From positions 186,001 to 250,000 of the forward strand of contig CM030722.1 of the NCBI GenBank assembly GCA_018127085.1: DNA of 64,000 nt, in the 5' to 3' direction. The position numbers were made by a program, and so were the translations under genes. Under the pieces are notes generated by a model. The model worked only from the letters and a program-made list of their open reading frames with translations. It had not been told where the DNA came from and did not search any database. The first letter of the stretch is position 1. Each line of letters opens with the position of its first letter. This stretch comes from Pneumocystis sp. 'macacae' (Eukaryota; Ascomycota; Pneumocystomycetes; Pneumocystales; Pneumocystaceae). Shown in pieces: positions 4,149 through 41,022 of this stretch.

Positions 4149-4794
4149 TCAAACAGTCCGTAAATCGCTAAGTGCGCTTCGCACAATACATCCATATCCA
4201 GCAACCTCTACAAGCTATTATAGTAGTCAGTTTTTGTATATCGTATAAATAAGAAATACACCTTTTCGTGCCAATTTAAAAGAATTGTTGAGTTATATGC
4301 TTTTGGATTTGAAAGACCTTTGTATAAATACTTCATTAATACATCCTGTTGTTCTATATTAAAAGCTTTTATTGTATTAAGAATTTCATTAGGTTTTATT
4401 GAAGATAGAGTTTCAAATACGGTATTCATATGTATTATCTGTAATGTATAATGCGATTGGTATTGTTATTTATATTTTTTTACCTTAATATCGTCTATAT
4501 CTTTTCCATACGGTGGATTGATTAGTGCTTTACCTAATGCTTCTACGGCTTTTCCTCTATTAAAATAAGCACAATCTTTCTGCCTAAAGTTATTTTGTAT
4601 ACTTTTTGACCATATAAAGCAATTCTGGTGTCCTTTTAGATATATCTTCCTGTACTTCTTCAGGAGATTGTTCTTCCTTTTGATATAAATCTTCTTTTTT
4701 TAATTTGTCTTTGTCTGCTTGTTTTTAATGTTTGAGAAAAGAATATTAAAACAAAAATACTGAAAATATCAATATTTGCATGTCTAAATGACAT
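4149..4794 (-). CDS. ARPC5: Arp2/3 complex subunit 5 (p16-Arc)
   Basis: Smallest subunit of the Arp2/3 actin-branching complex at cortical patches. Exons (minus): 4761..4794, 4621..4717, 4484..4583, 4262..4438, 4149..4214, about 157 aa, the usual family length. Diagnostic pieces: RGKAVEALGKALINPPYG, then LSSIKPNEI, the strongly conserved QQDVLMKYLYKGLSNP and LLNWHEK, and the C-terminus VEVAGYGCIVRSALSDLRTV. The exon 2/3 junction is uncertain: the choice that fits length and frame is a GC-AG intron (4584..4620); canonical GT choices would make a 31-nt or 76-nt intron. The N-terminal exon (MSFRHANIDIF) is inferred from its resemblance to the family's FRKIDID start. Confidence 0.88.
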
Positions 4795-5607
4795 TTTATC
4801 TATAATAAATTCTTTTTTGAAAATCTTTAAAAATTATTCAACGATGTTTGATTTTAAGAGTGAGTTACAAAAATAATGAGTTATATTAAATAAATGGGTA
4901 TTTTTAATATTTAGAATTGTATTTAAAAGAGTTTAAATTCATATTTCATTCTACAATAGTTATTTTTTGAAATTTTGCAAGGCTTTTGGAAAATGTATTA
5001 TAGTTATACTTGTTATTTAGATAAATATGTAGAATAATATATTTTTATAGAAATACTTAGTTTTAAAGAATTTTTTGTTTTTAGGAATATACTTTGTTCA
5101 TTTTTTGTTTTTATTTGAATTGATTGGATTTGATTTTAAGATTTTTATTTAAAGATGTTAACAAACATATTTAAATTTTTTGATAATAGGTTTTTTGTTT
5201 TTATATTTATTGTATTTATTACTAAAATGCTCTTATGCTAAAGGTTTTAAAATCATGTATGAATTGATTAAACTTGGATTTTTTATATATTGTATTTATA
5301 TCTTATTTTCCTATAGAATTGAGATACTAGATCTTAATAATTTTGAAATGTTTTTTATTTTAGGAACTACCTGTATTAAATAATACTAAAAATAGTTGTA
5401 CCTATTACTTTTTTATTATATATTTTATTAATATAACACTTTTTAATTTATCGATTCTATATACTTTATTTTTTGTATTTTTATGATTTAAGAAATGATA
5501 TACGACTTTATTATGTTTTTAAAAAAAAAAATTGCTAAAGGTTCTAAAAAATAATGTCATGTTTTTTGGTCATATTTCAAATATCCGATTATCCGATTTC
5601 TTTGAGT
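4795..5607. other. AT-rich intergenic region
   Basis: Divergent promoter space between ARPC5 and RPS7. The only open frame (5180..5383 +) is a Leu/Phe/Ile-rich translation of poly-A/T sequence without homology signal. Nothing else is seen. Confidence 0.5.
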
Positions 5608-5619
5608 AGGGTTAACCCT
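5608..5619. promoter_or_regulatory. Telomere-repeat-like palindrome upstream of RPS7
   Basis: AGGGTTAACCCT is a perfect 12-bp palindrome made of two head-to-head AGGGTTA/TAACCCT half sites, 62-73 bp upstream of the RPS7 start codon. Tbf1/Rap1-type Myb factors bind such telomere-like boxes in ribosomal-protein promoters of many fungi. Function here is inferred from position and sequence only. Confidence 0.45.
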
Positions 5620-5680
5620 TAAAAAGTATTCTATGACTTGTTTTTATAACGATTTACTAATATTATCATAAAAAAAGATC

Positions 5681-6383
5681 ATGTCAGCTACGAGAAAGAT
5701 TGTAAAGCCTGAAGGAGTCCCAATAACAGATCTTGAACGCACAGGTTTGATATATTTTTGTTTAAAAGAAGGAAATAATTTTGTAGTTGCGCAGGCGCTT
5801 TTTGATTTAGAAACTGTTCCTGATTTGAAGCGAGATCTTCGTTTGTTGCAAATTACAGCAGCTCGTGAGGTAATGAATTGGAAGTTTTTATATAGTCTTA
5901 TGTGTTTTTTGTTAAGTTTGATGTGGGCCGTGGAAAAAAAGTTATTACAGTTTTTATTTCGCCTGCTTTGCTTAAAGCATTTCATAAAATTCAATTACGG
6001 TTGGTTCGTGAGCTTGAAAAGAAGTTTTCAGATAGACATGTGGTTTTTGTTGCTCAGCGGCGTATTCTTCCGAAACCGTCTCGCAAGAATCGTCAAAAAC
6101 CGCGTCTGCGGTCACGAACACTGACATCTGTCCATGAAAAGATTTTGGAGGATTTGGTATTTCCGGCAGAGATTGTTGGAAAAAGAATTAGGGTATGTTT
6201 AGATGGGAAGAAAATTATGAAAGTGTAGGTTTTTGGTATTTAAAATAATTTGATTTAATGTTTAGCTTCTTGGATAATAAAGATGCCTCTTCAATTGATT
6301 ATAAGCTCGATTCTCTTCAATGTGTTTATAGTAAATTGACATCGCGGCATGTTATATTTAGTATTCAAGAAACAGGATTGTAG
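5681..6383 (+). CDS. RPS7: 40S ribosomal protein S7 (eS7)
   Basis: Component of the small ribosomal subunit. Exons 5681..5869, 5917..6224, 6266..6383 give 204 aa, slightly longer than the usual 190-195. The protein aligns end to end: [18 protein letters not shown], then [20 protein letters not shown], the conserved [20 protein letters not shown], and [19 protein letters not shown] followed by [20 protein letters not shown]. The second junction splits a Val codon (aaa gt | c ttc), which selects the 41-nt GTAGGT...TTTAG intron. A telomere-like palindrome lies 62 bp upstream. The gene is convergent with the m-AAA protease. Confidence 0.97.
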
Positions 6384-6762
6384 TTATAAAAAGTGTATGT
6401 ATCTCTTAGAGCTTTTCTGTAAAGGCATATTTTTAATATTGACTGAAATATATCTATAATTATTTGTTCCTTCTGTTTCATATTATTTGTTGACATATAA
6501 TGGGTTTAGAGCTCATTGTTCCCTTTATTTAATTCTATATTTTTGCAATACATTGGGTTTTTTGGCTTGGTTATTTTAAAATAAATAGTTAATTTATAAA
6601 TTAAATTTTAATTAGGAAATGATAGTATTAAGATATAGGATAAAAAGTATATACTAACAAAGAATATGTTTTTTTGAATTTTATTATAATTTTTTTAAAA
6701 AGTATTAATGTTAATAATATGATAGTATAAATGATCGTATTATATAGTTTAAATAATTATAA
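6384..6762. other. Intergenic between convergent genes
   Basis: 379 bp of 3' flank for RPS7 and the m-AAA protease. Nothing recognised besides A/T runs. Confidence 0.5.
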
Positions 6763-9249
6763 TTATGCAACATTTGGAACATGAGACGGAGGATTATCTA
6801 TTTCATGGGAAGGTTGGTAATTTGGTTCTGGATGCAAACTGATATCTTTAGAAGGATATGATCGAGGACCTAAAAGTTCTTGTACATCTTGAAAACCAAT
6901 AACTTCTTTTTCCAATAAAAGTCTTGCAATTTTCGAAATATCTTCTTTATGCTTTTCAAGAAGCTCATGGCATCTGGAATGCGCTTCTTTGATCAATTTT
7001 CGTACTTCAGAGTCCTAAAAGCTAATTAGATCACTATAAAATTATTATTTTCAAATAGTACAATCATTCGCGCAGTTTCTTCAGAAAATGGCTTTTGAAA
7101 TTGTTCATTATTTATTTGGTATGAAACAGTTCCAAGGTCTGATAATCCCCATGTTGTAACATATTGTGTGGCCATTTTTGTTACTTTAGAAAAATCGTCA
7201 CTTGCACCGGATGTAATCTCTACATTAGGAAAAAAAATTTCTTCTGAAACTCGTCCTGCTAGAGTCATTACCATATTGTCTAAAATATGTCCTCTAGATA
7301 GTAAGTACTTTTCCTAATTATGATTAATAATGGTATTTTTTAGTATAAATATTAATTACTTTCTGTAAATAGCTTGCATAACCCAATGCACCATTAGAAC
7401 GAGGTATAATGGAAACTTTGAGTAGCTGATCTACGTGTTCAAGAAAATAGCCTGCTACAGCATGACCAGCCTAACATTTAAGCTATTTTTTCATCTTTTT
7501 AAAAAAATAATATACCTCATGGTGAGCAACAGTATTTCTTTCTTGAGGACTTAGCACTCTACTCTTTTTCTCAAGGCCTGCTACAACACGCTCAATTGCT
7601 TGTTCGAAGTGAATCATTTCGACTTTATCTGCTCTGTGACGTGCAGCTATTAATGCTCCTTCGTTTACTGTGCTTGCAATATCTATGTATCATTAAATAG
7701 AATCAATAGATATTAAAAAACAATTGCCTGCTCCTGTAAATCCAGGAGTTAAAACAGACAGTCGCTTCGCTATATTTTCTAACTTTTCATCTGTTTTAAT
7801 TTTTTTTAAGTGAACCATAAAAATAGCTTCTCGGCCAGATACATCCGGTCGATCAATTGTAATATGTCTGTCGAATCTCCCTGGTCTAAGGAGCGCATTA
7901 TCAAGCACGTCAGGTCTATTTGTTCCAGCAAGAACAACAACATGTTCTGATGTACTAAACCCATCCATTTCTATTAAAAGTTGATTTAATGTGCTTTCCC
8001 TTTCGTCGTTTGATCCAAACTGATTTCCTCTACCTCTTGCTTTACCAATAGCATCAATTTCATCCATAAAAATAATACATGGTGCATTCTTCCGAGCAGT
8101 TGAAAAAAGATCTCTTACTCTAGAGGGACCTACTCCAACAAACATTTCAACAAATTCTGAACCACTCACACTAAGAAATGGAACATTTGCTTCACCTGCA
8201 GTGGCTTTTGCAAGAAGTGTTTTACCAGTTCCAGGTGGACCTGATAGAATTGCTCCTCTTGGAATCTTAGCACCTAATCTTTCATAATGTGATGGGTTTT
8301 TTAAAAATTTAACAAATTCCATAATTTCTTCTTTAGCTTCATCTGTTCCTGCGACATCTTTAAATTTAATTTTGATATCAGTTTCATGATTAAACATTTT
8401 TGCACGACTTTTGCCTATACCAAAAATCCCACTATGACTCCCTCCAGCACCACTTGCTCTCTTTGAAAGCCAAAATATACTCCCAATTAACAATAAGGTA
8501 GGCGCGAACGAAAGAATAGTACTAATAATTGAAATCTCATCATGAAACGCAACAGGAATTCTTTCATCATGTGAAATTTTCAATTCATCTTGTGCTGCAT
8601 CGAGTCTTCTTTCAAAGGCTTCTACTGATCCAATACTGAAATAATACTGACTTTGATTGGCATTTATACGAGCGCCAGGATACATTTGGCCTGTCTGATT
8701 TGAATGTAAATGAACACGTACTTTGTTTCTGTTAATAACTGTCAATTTATCAACCATACCCTTGTCTAGAAATGCTGTACGAAATTCTTGCCATGTAATT
8801 TCTTTGCTGCTTTTTAGAATAGCAAGTCGATAAACAATATAAGTTACAATGCATAGAGATAAAACAGAGTTTGCGTTAATCCTTATTTCGTTAAAATTCT
8901 GGTTTCCTCTTGTTGATCTTTTTTTATAACCATTTGTTTCTCTTGAGTAGGATTTTTTTGTTGTAGATTTTTTAGGTCTTCCAAAAAAGTTTTCAAATCC
9001 ACGAGGAACTATATCTTCTTCAGACATAGCATTTTCTTTGTTACTTTTGTCAATATCTTTTACATTAAGGTCTTTTTTTTTTTGATTTTTTTCCGGGGTA
9101 TTACTAATTTCATGAGTATATGCTCGGTATATTATCCTTGGCCATTTTTCTTGTATTGAGCTATGGGATTTCCAAAAAGTTATTCTTGTTTTTGGTAATA
9201 TATGTGAGATTTTAAAAAGTTTGTTTTTTTGCCGAAAATTTAGTATCAT
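6763..9249 (-). CDS. Mitochondrial m-AAA protease subunit (AFG3/YTA12, FtsH family)
   Basis: ATP-dependent inner-membrane metalloprotease that degrades or processes matrix-exposed membrane proteins. Exons (minus): 7728..9249, 7516..7682, 7360..7470, 7062..7313, 6763..7014, 767 aa. Order: basic mitochondrial leader (about 1-45), TM1 (about 125-142, [17 protein letters not shown]), TM2 (about 245-262, [20 protein letters not shown]), AAA module with Walker A GPPGTGKT, Walker [13 protein letters not shown], and the arginine fingers in [12 protein letters not shown], then the peptidase domain. The zinc motif HHEAGH is split by an intron (HHE | AGHAVAGY). Intron 1 (7683..7727) must be GC-AG to give the invariant GFTGADIAS. 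It is either Afg3 or Yta12; I cannot decide which. Confidence 0.95.
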
Positions 9250-9641
9250 TAAATTTTTATTTTTAATATTGACTGTTTAATAAATATATATAATTATAGT
9301 TAAATCTAGTTGGAAAAAAATATAAGATATGTTTTTTGCTGTTTTCCTTTGAAAAAGTGGTATTTGGGTTATTTTATGTTGTATTCTTAAATAACTTGAA
9401 TTTTCAGAGTAAGTTTTTTTCTGTAATGAGTCGAAACGATATTCAATGATTCTATGTTAAGAAAAAAGTAGTAATAAATTAAGTATTCATAATTTCGTTT
9501 TATATGTATTTTATTTTTAAATAATGTTATATATTTTTTAATTAATTATAGATTTTTTCAGGCTTAAAAACATTATAGTTTTTATAATTTATGAGTTGTC
9601 AATGAATATAAAAGGTGAAATTCAATAGAAGTGATGTTAAA
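9250..9641. other. Divergent promoter region, m-AAA protease / SPP1
   Basis: 392 bp of AT-rich sequence between divergent start codons. No motif stands out. Confidence 0.5.
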
Positions 9642-11029
9642 ATGAGTCTTTTTGATGTTCCAAATGAAGAAAAATATTCTAAGTGCGACAATGGTGGTGA
9701 TATGGTTATGGATTATGAAAGAAATGTTTCAGAAGATATTTATTTGATGGATACTGCTAATATGTTTGATGATAAAAAATGTGATGAAATACGAGTTGAA
9801 TGTTTAGATATGAGTGATTCTAAGATTGCACTAGCTTATAAGAAAGATGTTAAAAAGGTTTTTGTTACTTTAAGCATGTAATATTTTTAACATATCTTAA
9901 GGAGAAATTGAAAAAACGAAAAATTAACGGATTAAATATGGAAGGAAACTATGTAATGATCTGTTTTAAAAGACTCATTTATCTCCTTACTTTTTTATAG
10001 ATAGGTGACTTGGAAATTGATCATAGGGTAGATGTTTTTCAGAATAATACGATTAAAAAATCACAAACAAATAATTTCAATAATTTTAAGAATGAAAATA
10101 TCGAACTTTATTGTATTTGTCAGAAGCCCGATACTGGATGTTGGATGATTGCTTGTGATGGATGTGATAATTGGTATCATGGTGAATGTGTTAAAATCGC
10201 TAAAACTGATGAAGAACTTTTGGATAAATATTTCTGTAATTTCTTGTTTTACGTATTTTTATGGTTTTAATAATTCTAAGGTGAATCATGTACGAAAAAG
10301 GGTAAAGGTTATACTATTTGGAAAAGAAAATGTCGTCTTTTTTGGTGTCGAAAGCCTGCTTTTGTTTCTTCATTTCCTCCCTCGAAATATTGTTCAAAGG
10401 AGCATGGTGTAGAATATTTTAAAGAAAGGCTATGTTGTTCTGTATTAGAAAAATCAGAAATTGCTGCTTTGGCACGAAGCGTTGATTCAGTTGAAGCTTT
10501 TAAATGTTTAGGTGATTCTTTTCCATTTGAAGATGAATCTATTTTGGATAGTGAAAGTTTATCGCTGTTAAAGTTAATTAACATCCAGCGGGAGGAAATA
10601 TATGAACGCTTAAAACAAATTGAAGTACGAACAATTTATATTAACTATGCTAAAGATAGAGCAAAGAAAATAAATGAAGAAATACGTGTTGATGGATCTA
10701 AAAAAGAAATATGTGCTCTTGATTATCGTTTATCATGGGATGATGATGATTGGAATGCTTGGGTTGTTAGTGATGATGGGAAAAAAATATTTGATGATGG
10801 TAAACTAGAAAGTTATGATTTAATGTGTATTACAGAAAAAAGGAAATGTTTTAAACATAATAACTGGGTTGCAATAAAAATAGAGGAAACGGAGTTGGAA
10901 GAAATAATATGTCGTGAAATGCTTAAAAAGCTTAGAAGACAAGAAAAAAAGATATATAAAAGACAACGGAGATTAAAGGTTTTGGATAGAGAAAATAAAT
11001 GTATTTCTATTACACATACTTTGCAGTAA
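9642..11029 (+). CDS. SPP1: Set1C/COMPASS PHD-finger subunit SPP1 (CFP1 family)
   Basis: Subunit of the Set1 histone H3K4 methyltransferase complex; the PHD finger reads H3K4me. Exons 9642..9857, 9902..9952, 10001..10235, 10281..11029, 416 aa, close to fission yeast Spp1. PHD finger: YCICQKPDTGCWMIACDGCD, then NWYHGECV, completed across an intron by C|ESC, giving the Cys4-His-Cys3 ligands. A second Cys-rich block follows (KRKCRLFWCRKPA...SKYCSKEHG), the SPP1/CFP1 zinc region. The C-terminal half is charged and coiled-coil prone, ending in a Lys/Arg-rich helix (KKLRRQEKKIYKRQRRLK). The intron at 9858 starts GTTTTT, a weak 5' site. Convergent with the LIM gene (119 bp apart). Confidence 0.93.
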
Positions 11030-11148
11030 ATAATGAATGGTTTATTTATATTATATTGCATTGTAATAGTAATGTATTAAATTAGAGTTCTGTTTTAAAA
11101 TGTAGCTAAGTTATTTTGAAATTACTAGAACGAAAATAAAATTCGTCT

Positions 11149-13038
11149 TTAAATATTTCGATTTTCGAAAGTACTAAAATCACGTAAAGTATTACTCATT
11201 ACTAAAGGTATAGCCATTCGTTTTTTTTTTTTAATACTATCCCAGCAAGTTCTACAATAAATTTTCATCTTTCCATCTTTATCTATCTCATTTAAAGCAC
11301 CAGAGTCCATACTTTTACCACATCCTCCTGTACATTTTAAACACTTTTTATGCCATTTAGTAGAATTTGGTCCAGGATGAGATTCAAAAAAAGTTATTGA
11401 ATTGTTACAACCGGTACATTCTAAAACATAATTAGAAGAAGGTAATATAGTAAATAAAATACTATCAAATCCTCCGAATTTTGGAAGAGGTTTTTTTTTC
11501 ATAGAGAACAATTTAGTTGAAGTATTATCTTTTAATGATTCTATATTTATAGTTTCTGATAATATTTTTTCTTGTAATGGAGGTTTTGATAAAAAATTAT
11601 TTCCTAGTTCTGATCTGCACTAAGATATTATTAACAAATATCCATTTAATCTAAAGAGTTACTTTTTTATGATAAATACCATTTTTGTAGAAAATATAAT
11701 TATTTTCCTTAAATGGAGTATTACAAAAATAACATTTAAAACATTCTTGATGATATTTCTTTCCTTCTGCAATACAAATTACAGTATTTGTTACGTTTTT
11801 TTCACAAGAATCACATAAAAACAATTGTTTTTTCTCTTGATCTGAGAGTATTTTTAAATGTCTAGAAAATATTTCTTTCTCTGAAAAAGAGTTGCAATCA
11901 ATAACTGATAAAGCGTTGTTTTCCGATTTAGCAAAATTTTCTGAAAATAATTTGTTTTTGTAGTTTTTAGTTGATATTAAAGTAGGAGGGATATTTTCTT
12001 GAGAAATGCTTGTTTGTGTTTCTGATAAAGCTATAGGTGACATTTTAGATTCTACGTTTTCTTCTTTAATTATTCTATCTGGAGAATTAGATAGTTTAGA
12101 AGAAATATTGATTATGTTAGGTGTGCTAGATGAATTATGTAATCGTTTTACTTCTGTAAAATTTTCTATATGCTTGCGAATATTTAAAGAATTTCTTTTT
12201 TTCTTGATAAGTAGTTCTCGCATTTTTGAATCTTTTAGAGAGATTTGTTGTATGGAAGTACAAATTTGAGAAACATTAGTCTTTTTCAAATTATCCATAA
12301 TTAATGAACTGTTTTTAATAGGAGAATTTAGTATTTTGTTTGTATATTTTTCTGAAGATTTTATAGAGTTCGTATTTTTCTCTAGATTTTTATCTGAATT
12401 TTTTATATTAATAATAAAACTATTCTCATAGCAAGATTGTTTATTAGGCTTTATTTTTAAAATATTTTGAATATTTTTGTTTCTATCGATTTCCTTTAAG
12501 TTCTAATATGTTTAAGTAATATTTTTATAAAGAAGTTCAAGTTTTACTTTTTGAGAATCTTTGTTTTCATATATCTGAATAGTATTATTCATATCATTTG
12601 AACATAGACTATTTGAGTAATTAGAAAGAAAAGTAAAAAAATATGATATGTTTACTTGTAATTCTCTGATAAGAGATGAAGGTAGCAGTTTTTACAATAA
12701 TGAGTTTCTTGTTTTCCGATAGTATTATACATTAATTTATTCTGTAAAATTTCAGAAAATTAAAATATAATATAGAACAAATACAGATGAAAAAGTTTCG
12801 CAACATGAGGAGCATAGCCAAGGTATATCTTTTTTCGGGAATTTAGATGATGGATTTAGATAATTTTTCGTGTTTTTTGCAAAATTACTATAAATGTAAA
12901 TTTTAAAATTTGTTTGAATAAGTAGTATTACTCCATCGAAAAAAAATTATCTGTCTCTATGTTTTTTTTGTTAAATTTAATATCCAACATATTATGGTTT
13001 TTGTGATTATTTTGAGGCAAAGAATCATATTTATTCAT
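11149..13038 (-). CDS. LIM-domain protein (fungal paxillin-like type)
   Basis: Zinc-finger scaffold, probably at actin structures or the septum by analogy with fungal Pxl1-like LIM proteins (inference). Exons (minus): 12932..13038, 12785..12887, 12656..12741, 12548..12608, 11663..12502, 11149..11619, 555 aa. Near the N-terminus is a Cys4 block: CSSC, then about 21 residues, then CKNC, built from exons 2 and 3. A 280-codon low-complexity exon rich in Ser, Asn and Lys follows. The C-terminal half has two LIM fingers: LCDSCEKNV...KKYHQECFKCYFC...YHKKC and LECTGCNNS...KWHKKCLKCTGGC...IYCRTC. Both have the C-x2-C...H-x2-C-x2-C-x2-C spacing. Start is the first in-frame ATG after a stop; the upstream exons are supported by continuous frame only. 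Confidence 0.82.
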
Positions 13039-13551
13039 GGATGTTAATCTTATTTCTTTAGATTTTTTTAATGTTTTTGACTTTTATATTCTCTTTTCTC
13101 TTTTAAATAAATGTAAAAATATATATATTTCTTTATTAATATTTATTTTTGTAATTTTAATACCTTTTGTTATCTAATTTTTAAGTTATCAACATTAGGC
13201 TAACCATGGAAACTGTATCGATAACATTGAACGTTTATTTTTTTATTGTAATAATGTAAAATTTACATTTACATATTATATAATTTTTACAAAGAAATAA
13301 ATTTGCTTTATATTTTAACACTATATAGGTCTTACATGAAAATATTATTTCATATTAGTTTTATATAAGAACTTTTGATATTAAACAAAAATGATTTATT
13401 GAAATATGTAATTTATAGTATTATAAAAAACAAAAAATATATTATTTAATTGTATTTTTATTATAGAATTTATATTTTTTTATGAAAAAATATAATATTA
13501 TGTTTTTGAAGTTGTTGAAAATAGTTAAATATTTAGATATTGACGAACAGA
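13039..13551. other. Intergenic, nothing recognised
   Basis: 513 bp of very AT-rich spacer between two minus-strand genes. Confidence 0.5.
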
Positions 13552-15766: not shown

Positions 15767-16143
15767 AAATCATTAAAATGATTATGTTGAGAATATTAGT
15801 ATTTTGTTTAACGTGATTAATATTTTAATAAAAAATGTTTGAAATCATATGAAATTTTAAAATATTATTTATAAAAAGATCTTAATATATATATATATAG
15901 AAATGTTTTTAAAAAAAATCTATATTTAATTTTGATTTATGTATTTTTGAATAATGTTTTTTTGAATAATGTTTTTTGAATAATATATATATGTAACATT
16001 TCATTAAAGACTATTGACCTAGAATGTATAATAGTGCGACAAAATATTTACAATTTATTTAGATATCAAAACTTTTTAGCTTTTATAGATATTTTGATTT
16101 TATTTGAAAGTAAATGAGTAATTTTACGATCTATTTTTAGAGT
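15767..16143. other. Intergenic with short A/T repeats
   Basis: 377 bp between TOP3 and DCTN4. It contains a short TA dinucleotide run near 15889 and a small tandem repeat listed separately. Confidence 0.5.
15944..15986. repeat. Three tandem near-copies of TTTTGAATAATGTTTT
   Basis: The word GAATAAT followed by a T-run is repeated three times in a row, a local tandem duplication in AT-rich spacer. Confidence 0.6.
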
Positions 16144-17855
16144 TTAACTTAAACGTAAAACTTTTCCTACGCCAATTACTCCCCAGAATCCTATTTCTTT
16201 AGAAACGATGTTTTCTTTTACGTCAGTGTTTAGATGCTTGAATTCATTTTTGTCGAGGCTAATATTATAAACTATTTTAACAAAGATTGAAATTTCAACT
16301 AAATCATCATTGAAACTAAAATCATTTGAAGGAATTTCCGATGGAATAATTTCAAGAACAACAGTTGTAGAATTTTTTTCACGTTCCCATAAAGTTCCTG
16401 ATACTGGCATTTTTGTTAGATCTTTTACTGTAGATTTAACAGCAGAACTATTATCAGAGACATCATTATTAGCACTTACTTCGAATTCTGGGCATAAAAT
16501 GGTGACATTATGATTATATTTTCCAGAAGTTTGTCGAGGTGTTGCTAAAAAAACCTTTATTTTTTCATAAAGAGGATTTGTTACTGTTAAAAGAAATAAA
16601 TTTGCTACATTTGGTAAAAGTTTCCCAAGAGAACAATTAGAAATTGGTCCAGGAAAACATTTTAAAGAAATAGTAGGTAAAAAGTTCCTATGTAATTAAC
16701 AACATACTAATAATATAGCAAATATTTACATAGCTATTAATTTAACATGAAATTTTGTAGACATAGGCTTGTTTTCTGGATTAATAAGAATATTTTTACA
16801 TGAACGGCATCGTTTTAATCTTTTAGTCCTTAACAAATATGGTATAGGTTTGAGATCACTATTGTTATTAGTTAATAATGAAATATACAATATAATTTTA
16901 CTTTTTAAATATAACATGATTTAATTGATAAAATCTTTGTTTAACTGTAGCAACTATACGCTTTTAGTTCTGTTTTAAAATAACCTTGTTTAACTACTTT
17001 CGTCTAGATTTTTTATTTCAGACATTTTTTTAATAATTTCTTGATCATCTTGTAAATCTCGGGAATTGTTATCAAAATTGAAAATATTTGGTTTTTTTTT
17101 GTTTTCGATGATTTTTCTTTTGCTAATCTTTTCGTATATATTTGTTAATTTTGAGATTGCAGAATGATCGTTTGTATGTAATTTTAAAGTTCCATGTATT
17201 TCTTCATAATATGCTTTTAATTTATTATAAAAAAGCTTTTTTCTCGAAAATTCAGTTGATAAATTTTTCAATTGAGCTATTTATGTGTAATTAATAATAT
17301 AAAAAAAAAAGTAAAACTGAAAATTATTCACCATTAAGCCCTGTAGGTTTTTCAAAAATCATGTTAATTTCAGCTGACGTCCATTGGCAATATGGACACT
17401 CCATAACATAAGAATGAAATTTTTCAGTTGAACTTAATTGTTTTTTGTTTAAATCTTCTTGAAGTTCTATAATTGATAAAGATGTAAAGCAAATGGGACA
17501 TTGAAAACAGTTTCGTAAGCATCTACGGATATTAGTGTGGAATTTGATAATGTATTTAGACTTTCCTATTTCCATAACTATTTATGTTTGATTGAGGTAC
17601 TTCGAAAAGACAGTTTGGACAAAAATAACTAATTGTTTCCTCTTGAATACAACGAGGACATCTTATTACATAGCATTCTTTACAAAAATAAAGATTTTGT
17701 AAAGGATGGAATGAAAAAGATGTCCTTGGATTTTCTGTGTTAATTTTGTTGTTTGGAATTTCTAAAGAGTTTGAAAATGGAATATTTCTTTTTTGCAAAT
17801 TAATTGATGAATCTGAGCATGGACAATAAATATGAACATATGGAAAAATAGTCAT
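16144..17855 (-). CDS. DCTN4: Dynactin subunit p62 (DCTN4)
   Basis: Pointed-end component of dynactin, the dynein activator. Exons (minus): 17566..17855, 17332..17522, 16998..17276, 16902..16953, 16730..16858, 16144..16687, 494 aa. Zinc-binding N-terminus: YCPCSD, then FCKECYVIRCPRC and YFCPNCLFEVP, then CLRNCFQCPICF and ECPYCQW, the Cys-pair series typical of p62. Middle part RFYQLNHVIF, then LRTKRLKRCRSCKNILI, is a strong family signature. The C-terminal beta-rich part is less conserved. The first intron (17523..17565) has no GT at its start: protein conservation (GNR|CLRNC) places it at GAAAGT...CCGTAG. A canonical alternative (40 nt, GTACCT) would replace the conserved loop. Confidence 0.93.
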
Positions 17856-26403: not shown

Positions 26404-26477
26404 GATTCGGTGGTCTAGTTGGTCATGGCGCCAGCCTAACACGCTGGAAGTCGGGAGTTCGAGCCTCCCTCGAATCA
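26404..26477 (+). tRNA. tRNA-Val (anticodon AAC), no intron
   Basis: A 74-nt cloverleaf. Acceptor GATTCGG pairs with TCGAATC (one G-U), D arm GTC/GGC with loop AGTTGGTCA, anticodon stem CCAGC/GCTGG with loop CTAACAC (anticodon AAC), T arm GGGAG-TTCGAGC-CTCCC with an intact B box, discriminator A. It is followed by a T-rich stretch that could end Pol III transcription. Confidence 0.96.
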
Positions 26478-26724
26478 TTTTAATTTAATAGATTTTGTGC
26501 TTTATAAATTATGTAGTATTCTTCTGTAAAATTTATTTGCTTAAGTATTTGCTTAGGAAATATAAAAATTTAAATATTTAAAATAATTTGATAGAAGTTA
26601 ATGTAATATAAAAATTATATTTTAAGATTCATTAAAATACTGTATGAAATGTATGAAAAATATTATAATGAGGTTTCTATAAAATAGAACAGTTTTTAGA
26701 AAATAAATTAGTAAATAGTAAAAT

Positions 26725-31453: not shown

Positions 31454-34400
31454 TTAATTCGATAACGCAGATGGTATAAATTCATCTTCATCACTAATTT
31501 CGAGATTTTTTTCGTTATCTGAGTTATGTCTTTTATGTGTAAAATCTTCACAGTGTTTTCGTTGATATAATGATGCCGCAATTGCAATGTTGAAAAATCT
31601 ATGTTTTGAATCTTTATTTTTTAGTGCTGTATTCTCTATAATAATTTCTTCGTCTTTTTTTTCTAAAGTAAAATATTTATAAGGTAATGGTATATTACGA
31701 CTAACTTTCAAATGTAAAACATTAGTTGAATGTTCATTTTCAACCTTTATAAAGTAAGTTAAATATTATAAAATAATTTCTTACTCTGAATATATTCCAT
31801 AGAAACCTTCGAAAAATTTCAATTACACCAACAATGAATGTAACAAGTGGCAAATATTTGACATTTTTAATATAAATGAAATGTAATATCCATGAAAATC
31901 TTAATATCGGGTCAAAGATTATTATTAAGTAATAAACCTTTAAAAATAAGCTAATATATTAATAATTAGAAATATTTACCCAATAATTTTTAAATATTAA
32001 ATTGTTTTTTAGAAAAGGATAATTTGCGTATGGTTGCATTAATGAAAAATCCATAAATATATCCCAAAAGCCTAGTATATTATAAATTTAACATTATGTA
32101 AATATATGAAGCTTACTAGTATAGAAAGAATTGATTAAAGCAAAAGTAATATATAATATTTTATGTGTTGAATTATTATTTATTTTCCAAAAAGAAAAAA
32201 AAATATATGTTAAAACTGTACATGCATATTTCCCTGAATTAATAAGGTGCGGAAATATGTTTCTGGAATCATAATATCTTCTTAAACATTGTAAAAAACG
32301 AAAAATCCCAGGAATTGTTTGGAAAAATCCTGTTAATCTAGAATATGTGCTGCATTGAATTAAATTTTCAAAGTGATGATTATAAAAACAAAAAAATAAC
32401 TATTTTTAATTAACATCGTTTATAAAAAAATAAGAATTACTTCCTTTTATATTACCAAAGCAATATATTAAACTATTATATTGATCTCCTAAAAAAAAAT
32501 CCCGAAACTGAACAGAACATAATCCTGAAAAAAGTAGGCGAATCTAAATAAAATTAATATTTAATAATAAATATGTCTATTTTACGTTCGAAACAATGAA
32601 CCATTTACGCGATTCTTTATGAAAGTATGGTAATGGATTGAATAATATTATAGAAATTATTGTAACAAAAAACAATGGATAATAATTAGTTAAAGGTATT
32701 GAAAAGTTTTTAAAGTTAAGCCAAAAAAATAGTGAAAATATTAAAAAAATAAAAGATGGTATCTAGATTTATAAGATTTAAAATAAGAATTATAGTATAA
32801 AGATACTTCTAAATATTGCTTCCAGTCTAAATTATGCCTCGTATCAAATTCAAAAATAAATACATAGTTTATCCTTGATTTTGTCCAAATATAACAATTA
32901 AGACCAAAAAGAAGTAAAAATAATAATATAATAAAAAACCCTCCCCATATTTGAAGAAGATATTTTTTTATTAAGTTTAATTCATTAACTAACGTTCTAT
33001 TTGCTAAAATATGTTACTAATAATTATTTTATAGTCTTCTAAAATACCATAAATTAGCCCTTCTATAAGAAGAGGTAATGAAAATCCAAGATATAGACCA
33101 ACTCTAAACAAAGTATTTGCATAATCCTTTTTATTAATATTAGTAATATTTGTATTAAGAAATAACATACTGTAGTTTTTTGTCTAGTTCGAAGTTTTTC
33201 TATAGCACTTTTTCTATTATTTTTTTCGAAATAATATGCAAAAATATTCTTAATAATATAAGTTTATAATAATATATGTATAATATTTATACTTCTAACT
33301 CTGTCATTAGATCATTATTTATTTCACTAGATCCGAAATGACTTTCAGTAATTTTAGGCATATAAAATTTTAAATAATTGATGCCAGTAACTTTAGTTAT
33401 TTTTTTCAAAGCCTTTCTAAATGCTTCTATGTTCATTGTACGGTAATCTTTTAAAAGTTCTGTTTCATGGTAAAAATCAATAATAGCCTAAAGGTTTGAA
33501 GTTAAAAAATATGAAATAAATACTTACTATTTTTAAGCGTTTTTTAGCAATTTTATAAGCAATGTTTTTAGAAATGCAATTTTTTTTTTCATAGAGAATA
33601 TTTTTCTTTTTTATAAATCCAAAAGATGTGTAAACTTGATGCAATGGTGCTAAAGAATTATTTATCCAATTTAAAGAGCTTTTATTTTTTTTTATTCCAT
33701 TTATCTAAAATTAATATGAATTTAAAAATAAAAAATAATTAAATAGTTACATTTTTGTTTCTTTGCCTGTTATTCATTTCGAGCAATTGTTTTTTTATTT
33801 GTTCAGAACGTAATATTATTTCTTTTTCTTTTTCTTTATAAAAATTATCAACTTTTTGAAGTTCTTCATTTAAAAATGTAAAAAATTGAAATATTTCTTC
33901 ACTATTATCAAGTAATTTAAGATATGAATTTGAATTTGTATTGTTAATATTATATCTTCTGTGACCTGCTATGTATTGAGAATATGAATCTGGAATGTAT
34001 GAATTATTTTCAGAGTAAAATATGTCATCAGATATTTTTGTTGGAAAAAATGAACTTACATTATAATCTTTGTTATTTTCGTGTGATCCTTTATGTTTTG
34101 TAATATTAGATTGAAACTTTGTATTTAAAGTAAATTCTGTTGATTCTGATATATTTTTAAATAAATGTGCATTTAAAACATTGTCATAGTTTAAATCATC
34201 TTTTGAAAGATTATTTAAATTTTGATTTTTTACTAAATTATTTATAAATGGTTTTTCATATAAGATTTCATAATTTGATAATTTTAGATTTTTTTTTTGG
34301 GAAACTTTTGTTACAAGTTTTTTTGCTATAAATGTTATAAATTATAGAAAGTATACTATTAAATATAATACCTTTTTTATAGTTGAGATATTTTTCACTC

Positions 34401-34525
34401 CATTCTGAAATATTAATAAGGCAATAAAAGTAATATTAAATACCAGATATTAAATTATTTTCAAGTTTTCTAAAGAAATTTAGATATTTTAAAACTTTTT
34501 TTGAAAATTACTTAGCATATTTCAT
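31454..34525 (-). CDS. SYG1: SPX-EXS membrane protein (SYG1/XPR1 type phosphate exporter)
   Basis: Polyphosphoinositol-sensing phosphate exporter family. Exons (minus): 34512..34525, 34444..34469, 34372..34404, 33751..34325, 33528..33704, 33293..33487, 33171..33248, 33048..33126, 32807..33003, 32586..32762, 32445..32543, 32117..32399, 31980..32071, 31785..31937, 31454..31744, 822 aa. The SPX domain starts MKYAKKLENNLISEWSEKYL (first three exons 14, 26, 33 nt) and continues after a Ser/Asn-rich insert with LLKDYRTMNIEAFRKALKKI. The EXS part has several TM segments and WTKSRINYVFIFEFDTR, VQFRDFFLGDQYNSLIYC, RLTGFFQTIPGIFRFLQCLR, YWDIFMDF-like FWDIFMDFSLMQP, and EIFRRFLWNIFRVENEH. The junction after exon 11 needs a GG-AG intron (32400..32444). 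Confidence 0.93.
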
Positions 34526-35484
34526 TGAATTTTGATTTGATCCTTGATGAATTGAGTATTACTTTTATGAGTTTTTTTATATACAATTTAAAATAAAAAT
34601 GTTATTATTTATTTTCTTTTAGAAGGTTTAGTATTTAACGCATTAAAATTATATTAATTTTGTTTTTATTTTAAATTATTTTTAATAATTTTATTGTAAT
34701 TAAATTTTTAAAACTTCGTTAAATTCTATTTTTTAATACAAAAAATGTTAATTATATAATAAATTATAGAATGTTATTTTATAACGATGGTTATTATTTA
34801 AAAATTACTTAAAAATTAATATATATATAATATTTGAATATACATTTTTATTAAATATTTTAAGATTTATAAAAATTTTTTAATATTATAATATTTATTA
34901 TATAAATAGTTGTAAATGATGTAATATTGTTAAAAGTAAATGAATTTTATTTTGAATTTGTTTTTTTAGAAAAAATGTAAAAGATTCTGGTTATTTATGA
35001 TTTTTTTTAATTTCTAATATTTTTAAAGTACTTTAATTGTAACAATCTGAATAATTTTGAAAATTTTTATTTTTAATATTTTGAATTATATTTAAATATA
35101 ATAGTTTTAATAGATATATAATTTTTGAAATTTTGATCCCTTTATTTTTATATTCTGTTATTTTATGATTTAATATTTTTAAAGTGAAAATGGCAGATTT
35201 ATTTTTTTTGTAAAAAAATAATAATTATTATTATGAAACGTCTTTAGATCTGAATTATTATATTATATTTTAAAAATATATATTTTTAATTTTTCTAAAA
35301 TTTATGCTATTAATTTAATTTTCGATGTCACGTGATGATAACGTTTTTTCAAAATATTTTGAAAGTTCGACGTGTTAAACAAAGCTCAGTGTAAAATTAT
35401 TTTTATTATAAATTTTATTTTATTGATTTTTTGTTTTTTTTTTTTTTTTATATTTTAAATATTAATAATTTAGTGTTTACAAAT
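34526..35484. other. Divergent promoter region, SYG1 / arrestin
   Basis: 959 bp, nearly all A/T, with one E-box listed separately. No coding frame. Confidence 0.5.
35328..35335. promoter_or_regulatory. E-box TCACGTGA upstream of the arrestin gene
   Basis: A perfect CACGTG palindrome with flanking T/A, 150 bp before the start codon, in otherwise A/T-only sequence. Fungal bHLH factors (Cbf1, Pho4, SREBP-like) bind this word. Position on the SYG1 side also makes a phosphate-regulator link conceivable, but nothing else supports it. Confidence 0.35.
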
Positions 35485-37824
35485 ATGGTTTCTTCAAATT
35501 ATAATAAAAGTCACAGGACTGATGAGTTTATGATTGCATCTGAAATTAGGGCAGCGGTATGTTTATTATAATCTTTTTTATTTTCTTATTTTATTGGAAG
35601 TCTTCGAAGTACAGTATGAGTCCCTGTCGTTCTGGTTCTAAATTTCATAAAAAGGATCCTTTTTACACCCAAATCTATCAAGATTCCTATTCGAATGACG
35701 ATGTTTTGTCATGTAATGAGCATGATGATTTCAAAAGATATTCTCAATCATCTAATGAACATGTTTTTGAATTAAACAATCGTCGAGCTTTACGTTCTAT
35801 TGATAATCATTTTGCAGACAATATAAATAACACTAAATTGCAAAATAGTTGTGCTTCTCATGAACATAATAAACAAGTTCAATCATATTTAAATGGACAT
35901 GATATATCTAGGTATATTCAAGACGATAATTTTGATTTATTGTACCCTATTGTTAATAATGGGATATTTGTGCGAGAATATCCTCCTTTAGATTTGTTAT
36001 CTAATTCTCGAATTAAAGGACCGAAAGTTGGAATAGATATGTCTCTTAATGCGGCTGTTCATGTTGGCGGGGGATTTATTCGTGGACATTTGCGGATTTC
36101 AATCGAATCATCTAAAGTATTATTAGGTAGTATTTCTCTTGATTGTTTGGGTGTTGAAAGTATTTTTATAGTATTTAATTTTGGATTAGATTAACGTTTT
36201 TGAGGTGTAAGGAATAATAAGTCACATATATTGTTCAGTGTTGCGAAGGAAATGATGGAATTTGAGGATTCGCCATTAAACCAACTCGTATATACTGATA
36301 TTGGACAATGCCCAGAAGATGGATTTTGGCCTTCACAAAAATGTAAAGCATCTGTTCCATTTGATTTGCATCTTCCTTTAAATGTAGGTCCTGGAACATT
36401 TGAATGTAAAGATGGACAAATAAAATATTATATGTTTGCGTATTAAAACAATTATGTTCCGTTTTTGTACTAACTACTAAAGAACGCTTCGTTATAAATT
36501 AAAAGATAAGATTTTTTTGTCACGAGTATGCAAAAATTTGCTATTATTTACCGCTCTGCATCCAGATCGAGCTCTTGTACCAACTGAGCATCCTATAACA
36601 TGTATTGAAGAAGGACCTTTATTTTGCGGGGGAAAAGGTTCTTTAAAAGTTGAAGCAAAACTGCATAGACCTGTTTGGATTTCTGGTCAATTAGTATTTG
36701 TAGAAGTATGCACAACTAATCATTCAACGCGTACTGTAAGTATCAATATAATAAATAAAATAATTTTACATTATTAGGTTAGGAAAATAAAACTTGAATT
36801 GGTAAATATATGATACTTAAAATTTTATAATAATAATAATATATAAAGATTCGTCAAGTTATTATATATAATAGTCCGCCTGCTAATACTAAAGAGCAAA
36901 CACTTGTTCATGAAAGAGTACCTGATTGTATTAAAACAAAAATCTTGTCAACATCAATATTATATGCAAATGATCCTGAGGATACAAGAGCTTGGAAGGG
37001 TGTTGAACCGGATACTAGTGATTCTGTTATTTGTCAATTATTAATTCCTTCTGCACAACTTACAGTAAATGCTGGAAGACATTTAGCAGTTAAATATTTT
37101 ATTAATATTTCAGTGGGAACTGCTTTTACGTAACTATATGATAATAATAATAGCATATTAATGCATTTTTAGATCGAAGGTAGTAGTTCAAGTGCCTATA
37201 TTGGTTGCAAATTTATTATCACTTGACATTGCATCACATAATGTTACTGATGTAGCACTTACTATGGCAAAATATCATGATTCAAAAGTACCTGTTGATA
37301 ATACTTCTTCTCGTGCATTTAAAAGCTCTTGTAGAGATGTAAGTTCGCCACAACATGCTATTGGATGTGGTAGTAGTGAAGAAAGCGAGGATATTTTATC
37401 TGCTGTCCTTCGAGAAAAGCTTAAACCTCTTGATATAGAAAAAGTTAACGATGAGGGTTCTTCGCATTTTGTAATTAAAGAAACAAGTAATATCAATAAT
37501 CATCATTGTCCTCGACGATCTAAATCGGTGTTTCATCCACGAAAAAGATATTCAAATTGTAGTGGACACTATGAACACTTAAAGGTTGTTCCTAGAGACA
37601 ATGATGATGTAAGACTTGCATTATCTCATGAATACCGTGCTCCTAACATGGATATTTCTACTACTGCATTCGGATTTAGTAATGAATTATCTCCTATTTC
37701 CTTAATAAAATTAAATCAAAAACAATTGCATCCTAGAAATAATCGAGGAAGAAGCAATAGTGATCCAAATAGTGATCGTACTAATCGACGTACTGATCTT
37801 CCTGAGACTGTACAAGAAGAGTAG
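35485..37824 (+). CDS. Alpha-arrestin-like protein
   Basis: Likely ubiquitin-ligase adaptor for plasma-membrane transporters (Rsp5/Pub1 partner), inferred from the arrestin fold. Exons 35485..35556, 35601..36159, 36205..36439, 36483..36735, 36778..36801, 36849..37129, 37173..37824, 691 aa. After a disordered Ser/Asn-rich N-terminus of about 160 residues, the arrestin N and C lobes show VHVGGGFIRGHLRIS, PFDLHLPLNVGPGTFECKDG, IKYYMFATLRYKL, VEAKLHRPVWISGQLVFVEV, and LRHLAVKYFINISV-like AGRHLAVKYFINISVG. The C-terminal 200 residues are disordered and basic. I see no clear PPxY motif. Exon 5 is only 24 nt. The 36440 intron contains a perfect TACTAAC branch site. Confidence 0.82.
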
Positions 37825-37985
37825 TAGTTTTATAATAAAAAATTGCATTTAATTTATTGCTGTGTAGTTTTAGGATAAAATTGCTAGATAACTCGCTTTG
37901 AACTAAAAGATAAAAACTGTTTTTTTTCTTTTTTTGTAATTATAAAATGTTTAGGATTTGTAGATATGTTTAAAATATAACTTTC

Positions 37986-38552
37986 TTAATTTTTATTTGT
38001 ATTTTTTAGTATTTTTTCAACTTCATTTGTCATGTTTGGAAAATTGTTTTTGATATCTTGGGCTAAAATATTGCGGAAATTCTGTATGATTAGTAACGAT
38101 TTTAATTTATAATTGATAGTATACAGTTATTGCAATAGATTTTCCGTTAACATATTGATTGTCTTTTTGAACAAGTTCACTAAATTGCCTAGTGTAAACG
38201 TCTGGATTTTTACCATCTTCTATATAACTAATAAAAAGTTAATATGTGTGAATTTGAGAAAATACAATTAACTCGATGATATCTTGAGGTATCATTTCTG
38301 AAGTAAAATTTTTATTTGTATATAGAAATTTATAATTGTTTATTATATTTTTTCTAAAATTAATTTAGAGATATTTTATAGGATAAAAATAAACAACATT
38401 CTCTTATATATTGTTTGATTTGTTTTCGGATCTTCGAAATTATTAACGATTATGCTGAGATCATGAAGATTATAAATAAGAGATTCTAAATGTTTTTCTA
38501 GATCCAGAAGGCTAACTAAAGAGAAATAGTTACTAAATAAAGATTCATTCAT
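37986..38552 (-). CDS. MED10: Mediator subunit 10 (Nut2)
   Basis: Middle-module subunit of the RNA polymerase II Mediator. Exons (minus): 38398..38552, 38273..38353, 38125..38227, 37986..38081, 144 aa, the normal family size. N-terminal helix LLDLEKHLESLIYNLHDLSI then VNNFEDPKTNQTI, followed by IPQDIIDYIEDGKNPDVYTR and the C-terminal FRNILAQDIKNNFP. The DYIEDGKNPD block is the MED10 hallmark and spans an intron with a GTTAAT 5' site. The gene is convergent with the arrestin gene (161 bp). Confidence 0.93.
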
Positions 38553-39531
38553 GCGATAAAATAATAAATAAATCTTTTTTATAGTATTTTGAAAACTATA
38601 TGCACTTTTTTTAATTAGATTTTTGTTTCAGATAAATTTGTCTACGAAATTTATTTATAGAATTATAAAATTTAAAGTTTTTATTGTATTTGTATAATTA
38701 ATGAATAAGGTTTTATGAGATTGATATAATAATAATTATATATGAATTTTTACAGTTTAATTGAAAAAGCATATATAATATTTGGAATTATTTTAATTAA
38801 TAAAATATTTTATTGATTACTTTTAATTTTATATATAATTAACGTTTTGAGTAATTATTATGTTTAAAATGTGAGTTATTGTATTTCATATAATTTGTAT
38901 TTTTATTTTGTATAATATATATCTTATTAAAGTCTTTTAAATTTATACATTTTTAATGAAAAAACATTATAGTAAAATATTACTTTTAAAACTTGTGTTA
39001 TATTAATAGATATAATATTGTATATTCAAAAAAAAACAACTGATTATGTATTAAAAATGGATAAGTCACTTGTGTTAAACTTTAATAATTATAAAATAAT
39101 CGATAAAAAAAATTATATTAATTGATACATATGTATATGATAAATTTATACATAAATATGTATGCACATATTTTATTTCTTTTAAAAATACATGTAATTA
39201 TTGAGTTAGAGTTGAGTTAGAAAAGTATATATATTTTTAAATATGTGCATTTTCTGAAAATTTATGAAAAATATGTTGAAAATACGTTTTGTATTTATAG
39301 AAATGATAAAAATATATTAATACGTATAAGAGTGAAGAATGTTAGTTTTTGAATTATATCTTTTTTGGGTTTCTGATTTTAATTTTATATGTGTGATTTT
39401 GTTAATATATTTTTATTATTTTTTTATAATTTTCTTTTGTCAAATCAATTATCCGTTAAAATTCTTATTTTTATTTTAATAATTATAATATTTAGCATGA
39501 AATCGATATTTTGATAAATAATTTTATTTTT
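38553..39531. other. Divergent promoter region, MED10 / PXA gene
   Basis: 979 bp of A/T-rich spacer. A short imperfect direct repeat (GAGTTAGA/GAGTTAGA) lies near 39200-39222. No gene seen. Confidence 0.5.
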
Positions 39532-41022
39532 ATGGGGAATTATAGAAGTAATTCTTTAATAAGACGATATTTGTCTTTCTTGAGAGACTGTAGTTCTTCT
39601 GATAAACTTCCTTCTTTAACTAGTTCAGCATTGGTAGATGTTGAACTTTATTCTATTATTGCTATTATTTGTAGAGACTATATTAATGTATGGTATGAAC
39701 AAATGACTCATGATAAGAATTTTATTGAGGAGTTGTTATTTTTGGTTTCTCATATTGTTAAAGAACTGGAAAAAAGATTTTTCATGGTATAATTTTATAT
39801 AAAATTAATATTTATTATGATTAAAAAATAATATAGATAAGACACGACATTTTACTTTTGGATAGTATACCTATGATTGCTGTTAAGCATATAAATGGGA
39901 TGTGGTTTTTTCTATTGTGTAGGTTAAATTAATCTATATCAGATATTCGTAGAGCACAGAAAATATTGCTAACAGATATTAATTCTCATAAAACTTTTGA
40001 TGATGTATTTCGTGGATTTCAGCTGCATACTGCTTTAGATTCTTATGAAAGTGAGCATTTATATTTGCGTTTAGTGGCTGATGGTTTGATTACATTTCTT
40101 TTGCCATCTAGTGATCTTGGATCCGAATGTGAAAGAGTTATAATAAGAGAAATTCTTTCTGATCTTGTTCTTAAAAGGATTATAGATAAACTTAGTGAGC
40201 CTTCAATTTTGTTTGAGATTATTACAAAGGTAAGTTTGTATATTTATTTTTCGCTCTTTTGATTTTTAGTTAATAATTAATTTAAAAGAAAAGTCTAGTA
40301 AAACTAAAAAATGTAGATTTTCTAATATAATTATACTTATAAAACTATATAGTTTTATCTTATTTTTATGGAAAATTTTATTTATGTCTATTATAAATCC
40401 TCCACAGTTTGAGGTATTAAATATTTTTGATCTAGCTGGTTTCGATTTTATGTTTGAAGTTTTAGAACTTAAGACTGAAAATCCTTATATATATGTATTT
40501 ATTCGTTTTTTCTTAATTCCATGTTTTTTTGTCTTCGTTGGTGATATAATTTCAATGTAAGTAAATAATTAGATAGTAATATATTAAGGTGTTTTAGTAA
40601 ATTTTCGAAAATTTGGAATCAGCATATATTCACAGAAGAGCTTGCGATTAATTGTTTTCGATTATTGAGAACTTTAATTTGGTCTAATAATTCTTCTGAT
40701 GTTTCTAAAACTCAGTATTCTAGACTTGATAATTATGAAATTAAAGAAAAATTAGTCTTAGAAGTATATACCATTATACCAGGTTTTTTATTTTACTAAT
40801 TTAAATCTATTATTAAATTTAAAATTAGTATTTTTTAGAAAATTCTTTTTTAGCTCTAATGATGCCCTTAAAATTAGGATTAAACGCATTTTTAGCTTAT
40901 TTGATTCAAAATTAGCTAATAAGAATTTTATATTTTATATTCTTGATCTTATATTAAGAAATATAGTATGTGAGTTGTCTGATACTACTCCTGAGCGTAT
41001 TTTTATGCAAAGAATTGTGTAG
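39532..41022 (+). CDS. PXA-domain membrane protein
   Basis: PXA (PX-associated) domain protein related to the N-terminal part of Mdm1/Snx13-type and fission yeast Pxa1; probably an endomembrane contact or trafficking protein. Exons 39532..39786, 39837..39897, 39943..40229, 40270..40556, 40598..40782, 40829..41022, 422 aa. PXA signature: ELYSIIAIICRDYINVWYEQ, then HDILLLDSIPMIAVKHIND, and FHTALxxxxxE-like FQLHTALDSYESEHLYLRLV with LSDLVLKRIIDKLSEP. Hydrophobic segments follow the PXA domain (IIILIKLYSFILFLWKILF and FIRFFLIPCFFVFV). No PX or RGS domain is present. The junction after exon 2 requires a GG-AG intron (39898..39942). Confidence 0.85.

What the first reader, a model, noticed from the sequence alone, without database searches (positions are those of the whole stretch)
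4584..39942. Relaxed +2 position of 5' splice sites as a property of this genome
About 120 hand-read introns in the window include at least four where +2 is C, A or G, always with +1 G and mostly an intact AAGT/ATGT-like +3 to +6. Several other sites are weak GT (GTTTTT, GTTCTT, GTGGGA, GTTAAT). GA-AG and GG-AG introns are very rare in fungi as far as I know; together they suggest U1/U6 recognition that leans on +3 to +6 and on exon definition.
Basis: inference. Interest (0 to 1): 0.78.

Follow-up and report, generated by a model that had tools for sequence, protein, structure and literature searches.

The report
Rare non-GT introns in Pneumocystis macacae
In this lung fungus a few introns appear to begin with GC, GA or GG instead of the usual GT, and one GA intron seems old enough to have upset the gene models of several related species, but such introns are rare and do not show a changed splicing machine.

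Summary
The window is Pneumocystis macacae, contig C3. Of four non-GT introns implied by the finding, three hold and one falls. Holds: GA-AG 17523-17565(-) in dynactin p62; GG-AG 39898-39942(+) in a PXA gene, less certain; GC-AG 7683-7727(-) in Yta12. Each restores conserved protein sequence that GT readings lose. Falls: ARPC5 at 4584 is a GT-AG intron, 4557-4602. In 260 kb a gene model gave 452 well-supported GT introns against GC 4 (one dropped as junk), GA 1, GG 1 and, as control, AT 1; 2 GA/GG of 457 is no excess over the published fungal rate (P=0.33). The one U1 and one U6 found have normal splice-site-pairing sequences. 'Relaxed +2 as a genome property' is not shown. Notable: the GA donor may be genus-wide (murina, carinii and wakefieldiae protein models imply AAR at +2 to +4; jirovecii and canis models break at the same junction), and GT donors here are weak at +5 (G 31%), the reverse of 'leaning on +3 to +6'. 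Likely mechanism: standard spliceosome, +2 mismatch tolerated in otherwise strong donors.

The parts
17523..17565 (-). GA-AG intron, 43 nt, tag|GAAAGT...CACTAAT...CCGTAG|atg, in dynactin p62
   Evidence: Best of five frame-keeping donor/acceptor pairs (4.9; the only GT pair scores -5.6, under the 1st percentile of GT introns); product SYGNRCLRNCFQCPIC matches three Pezizomycetes EGNRCTRNCF[SQ]CPIC and P0002; Pfam 338.1 v 313.1 bits for the NCBI GT model
16144..17855 (-). dynactin subunit p62 (DCTN4/ro-2), 6 exons, 494 aa
   Evidence: PF05502 338 bits; homologues
39898..39942 (+). GG-AG intron, 45 nt, atg|GGATGT...AATTAAT...ATCAG|ata, in a PXA-domain gene (less certain)
   Evidence: Intron score 3.7 v 0.2 for the GT alternative 39902-39952; Pfam PXA 128.7 v 120.2 v 114.7 (NCBI model P0123) bits; IR[RK]A kept in P0121, P0124, P0125, P0126, not in P0122
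39532..41018 (+). PXA-domain protein gene (gene-model reading)
7683..7727 (-). GC-AG intron, 45 nt, cag|GCAATT...ACATAG|ata, in Yta12 (m-AAA protease)
   Evidence: Product TPGFTGADIASTVNE aligns without gap to AFG3L2 6nyy TPGFSGADVANVCNE; AAA_lid_3 31.3 v 12.5 bits for the GTTTTT alternative, scored on pieces of 62 and 64 aa
6763..9249 (-). Yta12/AFG3-like m-AAA protease gene
   Evidence: Seven aligned Pneumocystis rows and Neolecta keep KRTPELLYMVKKGKAVEAL-like sequence; S. pombe Arc5 109.7 v 101.7 bits
4149..4794 (-). ARPC5 (Arp2/3 p16) gene

Best explanation
Pneumocystis macacae uses an ordinary major (U2-type) spliceosome on an intron-rich genome with short (about 44 nt), degenerate donors. 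About 1-2% of introns carry a non-T base at +2: mostly GC, with rare GA and GG. They are removed because U1 and then U6 still pair with the rest of a strong donor (AG|GNAAGT or ATG|GNATGT), leaving one mismatch at +2, and because branch site, acceptor and spacing are normal. The donor sequences, the preserved protein frames and the normal U1/U6 RNAs are shown; the splicing itself is inferred. The dynactin p62 GA-AG intron is probably an old donor shared across the genus, hidden because annotation programs prefer GT. A neighbouring GT (4 nt downstream of both the GA and the GG cut) may help to recruit U1, as a GT upstream does in the published FGFR case; this step is speculation.
For: GA. GG. 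GC. U1 5' end AUACUUACCUG and U6 ACAGAGA intact; one match each. Branch-like CACTAAT 11 nt from the 3' splice site in the GA intron, at the main peak of distances in GT introns. The five C3 variant donors are stronger at the other positions than GT introns recovered under the same handicap (P=0.0014). P0002 (492 aa on a 1640-nt contig, source label lgn) leaves no room for the five introns of this gene at their P. macacae lengths (227 nt in all), so it is probably transcript-derived, and it reads GNRCLRNC across the junction.
Against: No spliced reads of P. macacae were seen here; every call rests on frame and conservation. The GT alternative of the GG intron has an acceptable intron score (0.2) and is separated by only 8.5 Pfam bits. 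The P. jirovecii RU7 model reads KHIN-IRRAEK, one residue shorter, so its donor may be GT; the P. oryctolagi model lacks IR there. P. murina's model (GNRKGLYICPIC) could be a real GT splice 4 nt downstream in rodent species. The donor-strength result rests on five introns.
Confidence: 0.77

Rival explanations
1. The GA and GG cases are assembly errors or one-base indels, and the real donors are GT.
For: The assembly is Nanopore polished with Illumina, so residual errors are possible. For the GG intron the jirovecii model differs by one residue.
Against: The gene models of five other Pneumocystis species break at the same dynactin junction: murina, carinii and wakefieldiae read GNR-K, which implies AAR at +2 to +4 if the exon ends at the same place; canis has an insertion; jirovecii starts inside. 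Separate assemblies would hardly share an error.
Confidence: 0.1
2. Genome-wide relaxation of +2 recognition, with U1/U6 selection resting on +3 to +6 and exon definition.
For: GA and GG both seen among 457 introns; recall-corrected +2 variants about 2%.
Against: GA+GG do not exceed the fungal baseline (P=0.33), GC is not high (P=0.84); +5 is weak; the U1 and U6 found are normal. The interval for GA+GG (0.05-1.57%) still allows an excess.
Confidence: 0.12
3. The real transcripts use nearby GT sites (NCBI models PMAC_001971, PMAC_001982), and the conserved residues are lost in this lineage.
For: P. macacae annotation had RNA-seq hints and these models avoid the GA and GG donors.
Against: The NCBI dynactin model loses conserved FEVP..GNR, 25 Pfam bits, and uses an intron scoring -5.6; mappers and annotations that force GT are a documented artefact.
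Confidence: 0.12
4. These are minor (U12-type) introns.
For: U12 introns allow other termini (recalled).
Against: Branch and spacing look like the other introns here; U12 RNA was not found, but its control rang nowhere.
Confidence: 0.02

Closest known systems
GA-AG introns of Eurytemora affinis and Oikopleura dioica (PMC7072748, passages and one section seen)
   Same: GA donor preceded by AG and followed by A, as in TAG|GAAAGT here; AG acceptor
   Different: There GA outnumbers GC, GA is 3.2% of the supported sites in one of the two species, and a variant U1 isoform is proposed; here 1 of 457 introns, and the only U1 found is normal
FGFR GA-AG U2-like introns of vertebrates (PMC4176328, passages seen, citing earlier work)
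   Same: Evolutionarily conserved single GA-AG intron of the major type, with a GT nearby
   Different: [quoted passage not shown] here the nearest GT downstream is 4 nt away and no dependence was tested
GC-AG introns of fungi
   Same: Yta12 intron CAG|GCAATT; frequency in line with the fungal average of 1.0%
   Different: Nothing
Fritillaria non-canonical introns (PMC13326754, abstract seen)
   Same: Core spliceosome kept while non-GT introns are removed
   Different: 95% of introns escape GT/AG there, with U2AF duplication and changed U1/U6 m6A; nothing like that scale here

Membership tests
U2-type intron with GA-AG ends | GA at the donor, AG at the acceptor, conserved frame kept only by this pair | tested here: met
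U2-type intron with GA-AG ends | branch site and spacing like the GT introns of the genome | tested here: met
   CACTAAT, 11 nt from the 3' splice site
U2-type intron with GA-AG ends | spliced reads across the junction in this species | not testable with these tools
   no RNA-seq held; a congener's probable transcript P0002 reads the expected join
U2-type intron with GG-AG ends | GG donor favoured over every GT option | tested here: inconclusive
   3.7 v 0.2 intron score, 128.7 v 120.2 Pfam bits; jirovecii model one residue shorter
Genome with relaxed +2 (E. affinis type) | GA as frequent as or more frequent than GC | tested here: inconclusive
   GA 1, GC 3 of 457 on C3; GA 1, GC 4 over 319 kb; against it, but the counts are small
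Genome with relaxed +2 (E. affinis type) | variant U1 isoform | tested here: inconclusive
   one U1 match, standard 5' end; 41 of 60 candidates were scored, so a second copy is not excluded
Minor-spliceosome (U12) introns | U12 snRNA present | tested here: inconclusive
   no match; the control rang nowhere
GC-AG intron | GC donor needed for a conserved protein | tested here: met

The most novel reading that the evidence does not exclude
The dynactin p62 GA-AG intron has kept A at +2 through the whole Pneumocystis radiation (origin put at a minimum of 100 My in PMC7940399, passage seen), so it is maintained rather than merely tolerated, perhaps as a deliberately slow intron; and the genus carries tens to a few hundred further GA/GG introns hidden by GT-only annotation.
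Probability: 0.25. Interest if true: 0.65.

Novelty: new member of a known kind. Interest (0 to 1): 0.4.

Why it matters
If the dynactin GA donor is genus-wide, it is a natural long-term test of how far the +2 position can vary under a standard U1 and U6, in a fungus whose donors are weak generally and whose relatives show intron retention at 42-49% of introns (PMC4764891, passages seen). In practice, a preference for GT seems to have upset the same gene in the annotated proteins of six Pneumocystis species, P. macacae included, and perhaps other genes.

Tried and rejected
ARPC5 at 4584 as a non-GT intron: rejected. Further non-GT calls in the window were not accepted because an exon beside them is tiny or the score is poor: GA 895-933, GG 60962-61008, GC 57104-57146. 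One GC call outside the window (agt|GCTAAC, score -8.0) was 'good' by the automatic rule and was dropped by me. 'Good' calls with other dinucleotides (CG 2, CC 1, AT 1, AG 1) were not accepted as introns; CG and CC lie in GC-rich stretches, AT scores -6.8, and the AG call (L027:1895-1933) was not followed up. The first gene model joined genes through tiny exons and was replaced. A pattern search of the genome for GA donors was considered and left out, since chance matches would swamp it.

Limits: recall of a +2 variant by the gene model is 0.53 (238 of 452), so the tally undercounts. The 5 variants counted there come from C3 alone. Loci gave 19 usable pieces of 30 (59,121 bases). Of 305 dynactin homologues 120 were listed and 10 aligned; no P. 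oryctolagi row is among the 120. Of 9 ARPC5 homologues 8 were aligned (P0136 left out); one of the seven Pneumocystis rows is P. macacae's own NCBI model and one (P0131) is unnamed and taken as Pneumocystis by similarity. The P. murina, carinii and wakefieldiae +2 bases are deduced from protein models, not read from DNA. Genome-search counts are lower bounds by the tool's own statement (U1: 41 of 60 candidates scored; U6: 48 of 1074; U5: 46 of 1132). On print: searches; none of the listings (66 and 74 list 12 of 79 and 10 of 48) showed a GA-AG intron in Pneumocystis, and subscription papers are missing.
Full report
What the window is. The window is G000:C3:186001-250000 of an 8.27-Mb, 19-contig assembly. 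The dynactin homologue search returns PMAC_001971 of Pneumocystis sp. 'macacae' on a contig of 571200 bases, the length of C3. The assembly paper reports Nanopore reads polished with Illumina, and RNA-seq hints for gene models (PMC7940399, passages seen).

How introns were read. Introns are short: median 44 nt, 5-95% 39-55, in 419 training introns. 'Good' introns have exons of 30 nt or more on both sides with coding scores of 3 or more. GT 452, GC 4 (one dropped later as junk), GA 1, GG 1, AT 1 (a 32-nt call scoring -6.1), CT 0, TT 0. With all 15 non-GT dinucleotides allowed and 59 kb more sequence: GT 546, GC 4, GA 1, GG 1, against CG 2, CC 1, AT 1, AG 1. In the window alone: 104 good introns, 101 GT, 1 each GC, GA, GG.

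The GA intron, 17523-17565 minus. TAG|GAAAGTC...CACTAATATCCGTAG|ATG. Of the five donor/acceptor pairs with G at +1 that keep the frame open, GA scores 4.9 without any dinucleotide term; the only GT pair (GTACCT, whose product is the NCBI model's) scores -5.6, below the 1st percentile of GT introns, -5.0. The GA product reads FEVPQSNINSYGNRCLRNCFQCPICF, which matches Pezizomycetes FEVPSSTVKTEGNRCTRNCFSCPICF without a gap; the NCBI model reads FESKYIIKFHTNIRRC. Pfam Dynactin_p62: 338.1 against 313.1 bits. P0002, a 492-aa protein on a 1640-nt contig with source label lgn, reads GDGNRCLRNCFQCPIC; since the five introns of this gene (227 nt in P. macacae, coordinates) would not fit on that contig, it is probably a transcript of another Pneumocystis (inference). 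The five other named Pneumocystis species seen all go wrong at this junction: murina, carinii and wakefieldiae continue GNR with K, which, if the exon ends at the same place, means A or G at +1 and AAR at +2 to +4, then lose CLRNCFQ; canis has an insertion; jirovecii starts at MHRCLRNC. The simplest reading is that the donor is not GT in any of these six species and is GA in at least four (one read from DNA, three deduced). The DNA of the others was not available here, and murina's model could instead be a real GT splice 4 nt downstream.

The GG intron, 39898-39942 plus. ATG|GGATGT...AATTAAT...ATCAG|ATA gives KHINDIRRAQKILL. Score 3.7 against 0.2 for the GT option GTGGTT, 39902-39952. PXA: 128.7 bits (GG), 120.2 (GT), 114.7 (NCBI PMAC_001982), 122.2 (jirovecii). 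IR[RK]A is present in jirovecii and three canis models; oryctolagi lacks IR; the seventh hit, P0127, is a fused model with a dehydrogenase in this region. P. canis Ck2 reads through the intron (NGKLFLCTVWRIKLICID), which fixes +1 G and +3 to +5 AAR but not +2. P. jirovecii is one residue shorter, so it may use GT. I put the GG case at about 0.65.

The GC intron, 7683-7727 minus. CAG|GCAATT gives TPGFTGADIASTVNE, aligned without gap to human AFG3L2. The GTTTTT option inserts two residues and loses the conserved D: 12.5 against 31.3 bits for AAA_lid_3, scored on pieces.

The case that falls. The lower bound 4584 lies in ARPC5. The GT-AG intron 4557-4602 scores 2.2 against -2.6 for GACACC. Its product fits S. 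pombe Arc5 better (109.7 against 101.7 bits), although 1k8k slightly prefers the other (61.1 against 62.5). The seven aligned Pneumocystis rows (P. macacae's own NCBI model and one unnamed row among them) and Neolecta keep the GT product.

Is it a genome property? GC 3, GA 1, GG 1 of 457. When each of the 452 GT introns was scored as if it carried the variant penalty, 238 were still found, so recall is 0.53 and the corrected rates are about 1.2% GC and 0.8% GA+GG. Published fungal averages are 98.715% GT-AG, 1.009% GC-AG, 0.019% AT-AC and 0.257% others (PMC7072748, passages seen). Two GA/GG of 457 has P=0.33 under 0.257%; GC has P=0.84. No excess is shown; the interval (0.05-1.57%) also allows one.

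What carries recognition? The variant donors are strong elsewhere: 98th, 98th and 87th percentile (GA, GG, GC in the window), and as a group stronger than GT introns recovered under the same handicap (P=0.0014, n=5). But ordinary donors are degenerate: +3 A 71%, +4 T 46%/A 38%, +5 G 31%, +6 T 56% (n=452); +5 G is 27% in 138 introns with no competing frame-compatible GT, against 12.9% G inside introns. So the genome as a whole does not lean on +5. Weak donors fit the high intron retention reported in P. murina and P. carinii (42-49% of introns, PMC4764891, passages seen).

The machinery. One U1 (5' AUACUUACCUG), one U6 (ACAGAGA intact) and one U5 were found; the tool scores only the best candidates, so further copies are not excluded. 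The U12 search gave nothing, but its control rang nowhere. The families of Prp8, U1C, Luc7 (one locus), METTL16 (Methyltransf_10, which also rings in bacteria) and SNRNP27 all match; their residues were not read. The +4 T/A mix is therefore not explained by plain loss of METTL16 or SNRNP27, the association reported for Saccharomycotina (PMC10581693, abstract and one section).

Comparison. GA preceded by AG and followed by A is the pattern of the GA-AG introns of Eurytemora affinis and Oikopleura dioica (section seen). A conserved GA-AG intron exists in FGFR genes, reported to depend on a GT 6 nt upstream, and non-canonical introns are known to be mis-annotated to a nearby GT (PMC4176328, passages seen). 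So the kind is known; what is new, as far as the searches listed under Tried and rejected show, is a fungal case that seems to be shared by a genus.

Noticed in passing
C3 donors, window and flanks: GT donors are weak at +5 (G 31%) although the U1 found is standard; robust to exon-length filters and to competing GT sites.
   Followed up: partly
39532-41018: The NCBI model PMAC_001982 (268 aa) lacks stretches present in the jirovecii model (421 aa) and in the gene-model reading here.
   Followed up: partly
C3 about 152440-152820 and 308650-308930 (outside the window): GC-rich coding-like stretches in an AT-rich contig, seen as false non-GT calls.
   Followed up: no
P0004, P0006, P0007 (dynactin p62 of rodent Pneumocystis): The annotated proteins lack the CLRNCFQ segment with conserved cysteines; either mis-annotation or a real change in rodent species.
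   Followed up: partly
L027:1895-1933: A well-supported call with an AG donor (cat|AGATAT) in a locus fetched for a WD40 match; could be a frameshift, an odd intron or an error.
   Followed up: no
26404-26477: tRNA-Val (AAC) gene.
   Followed up: no
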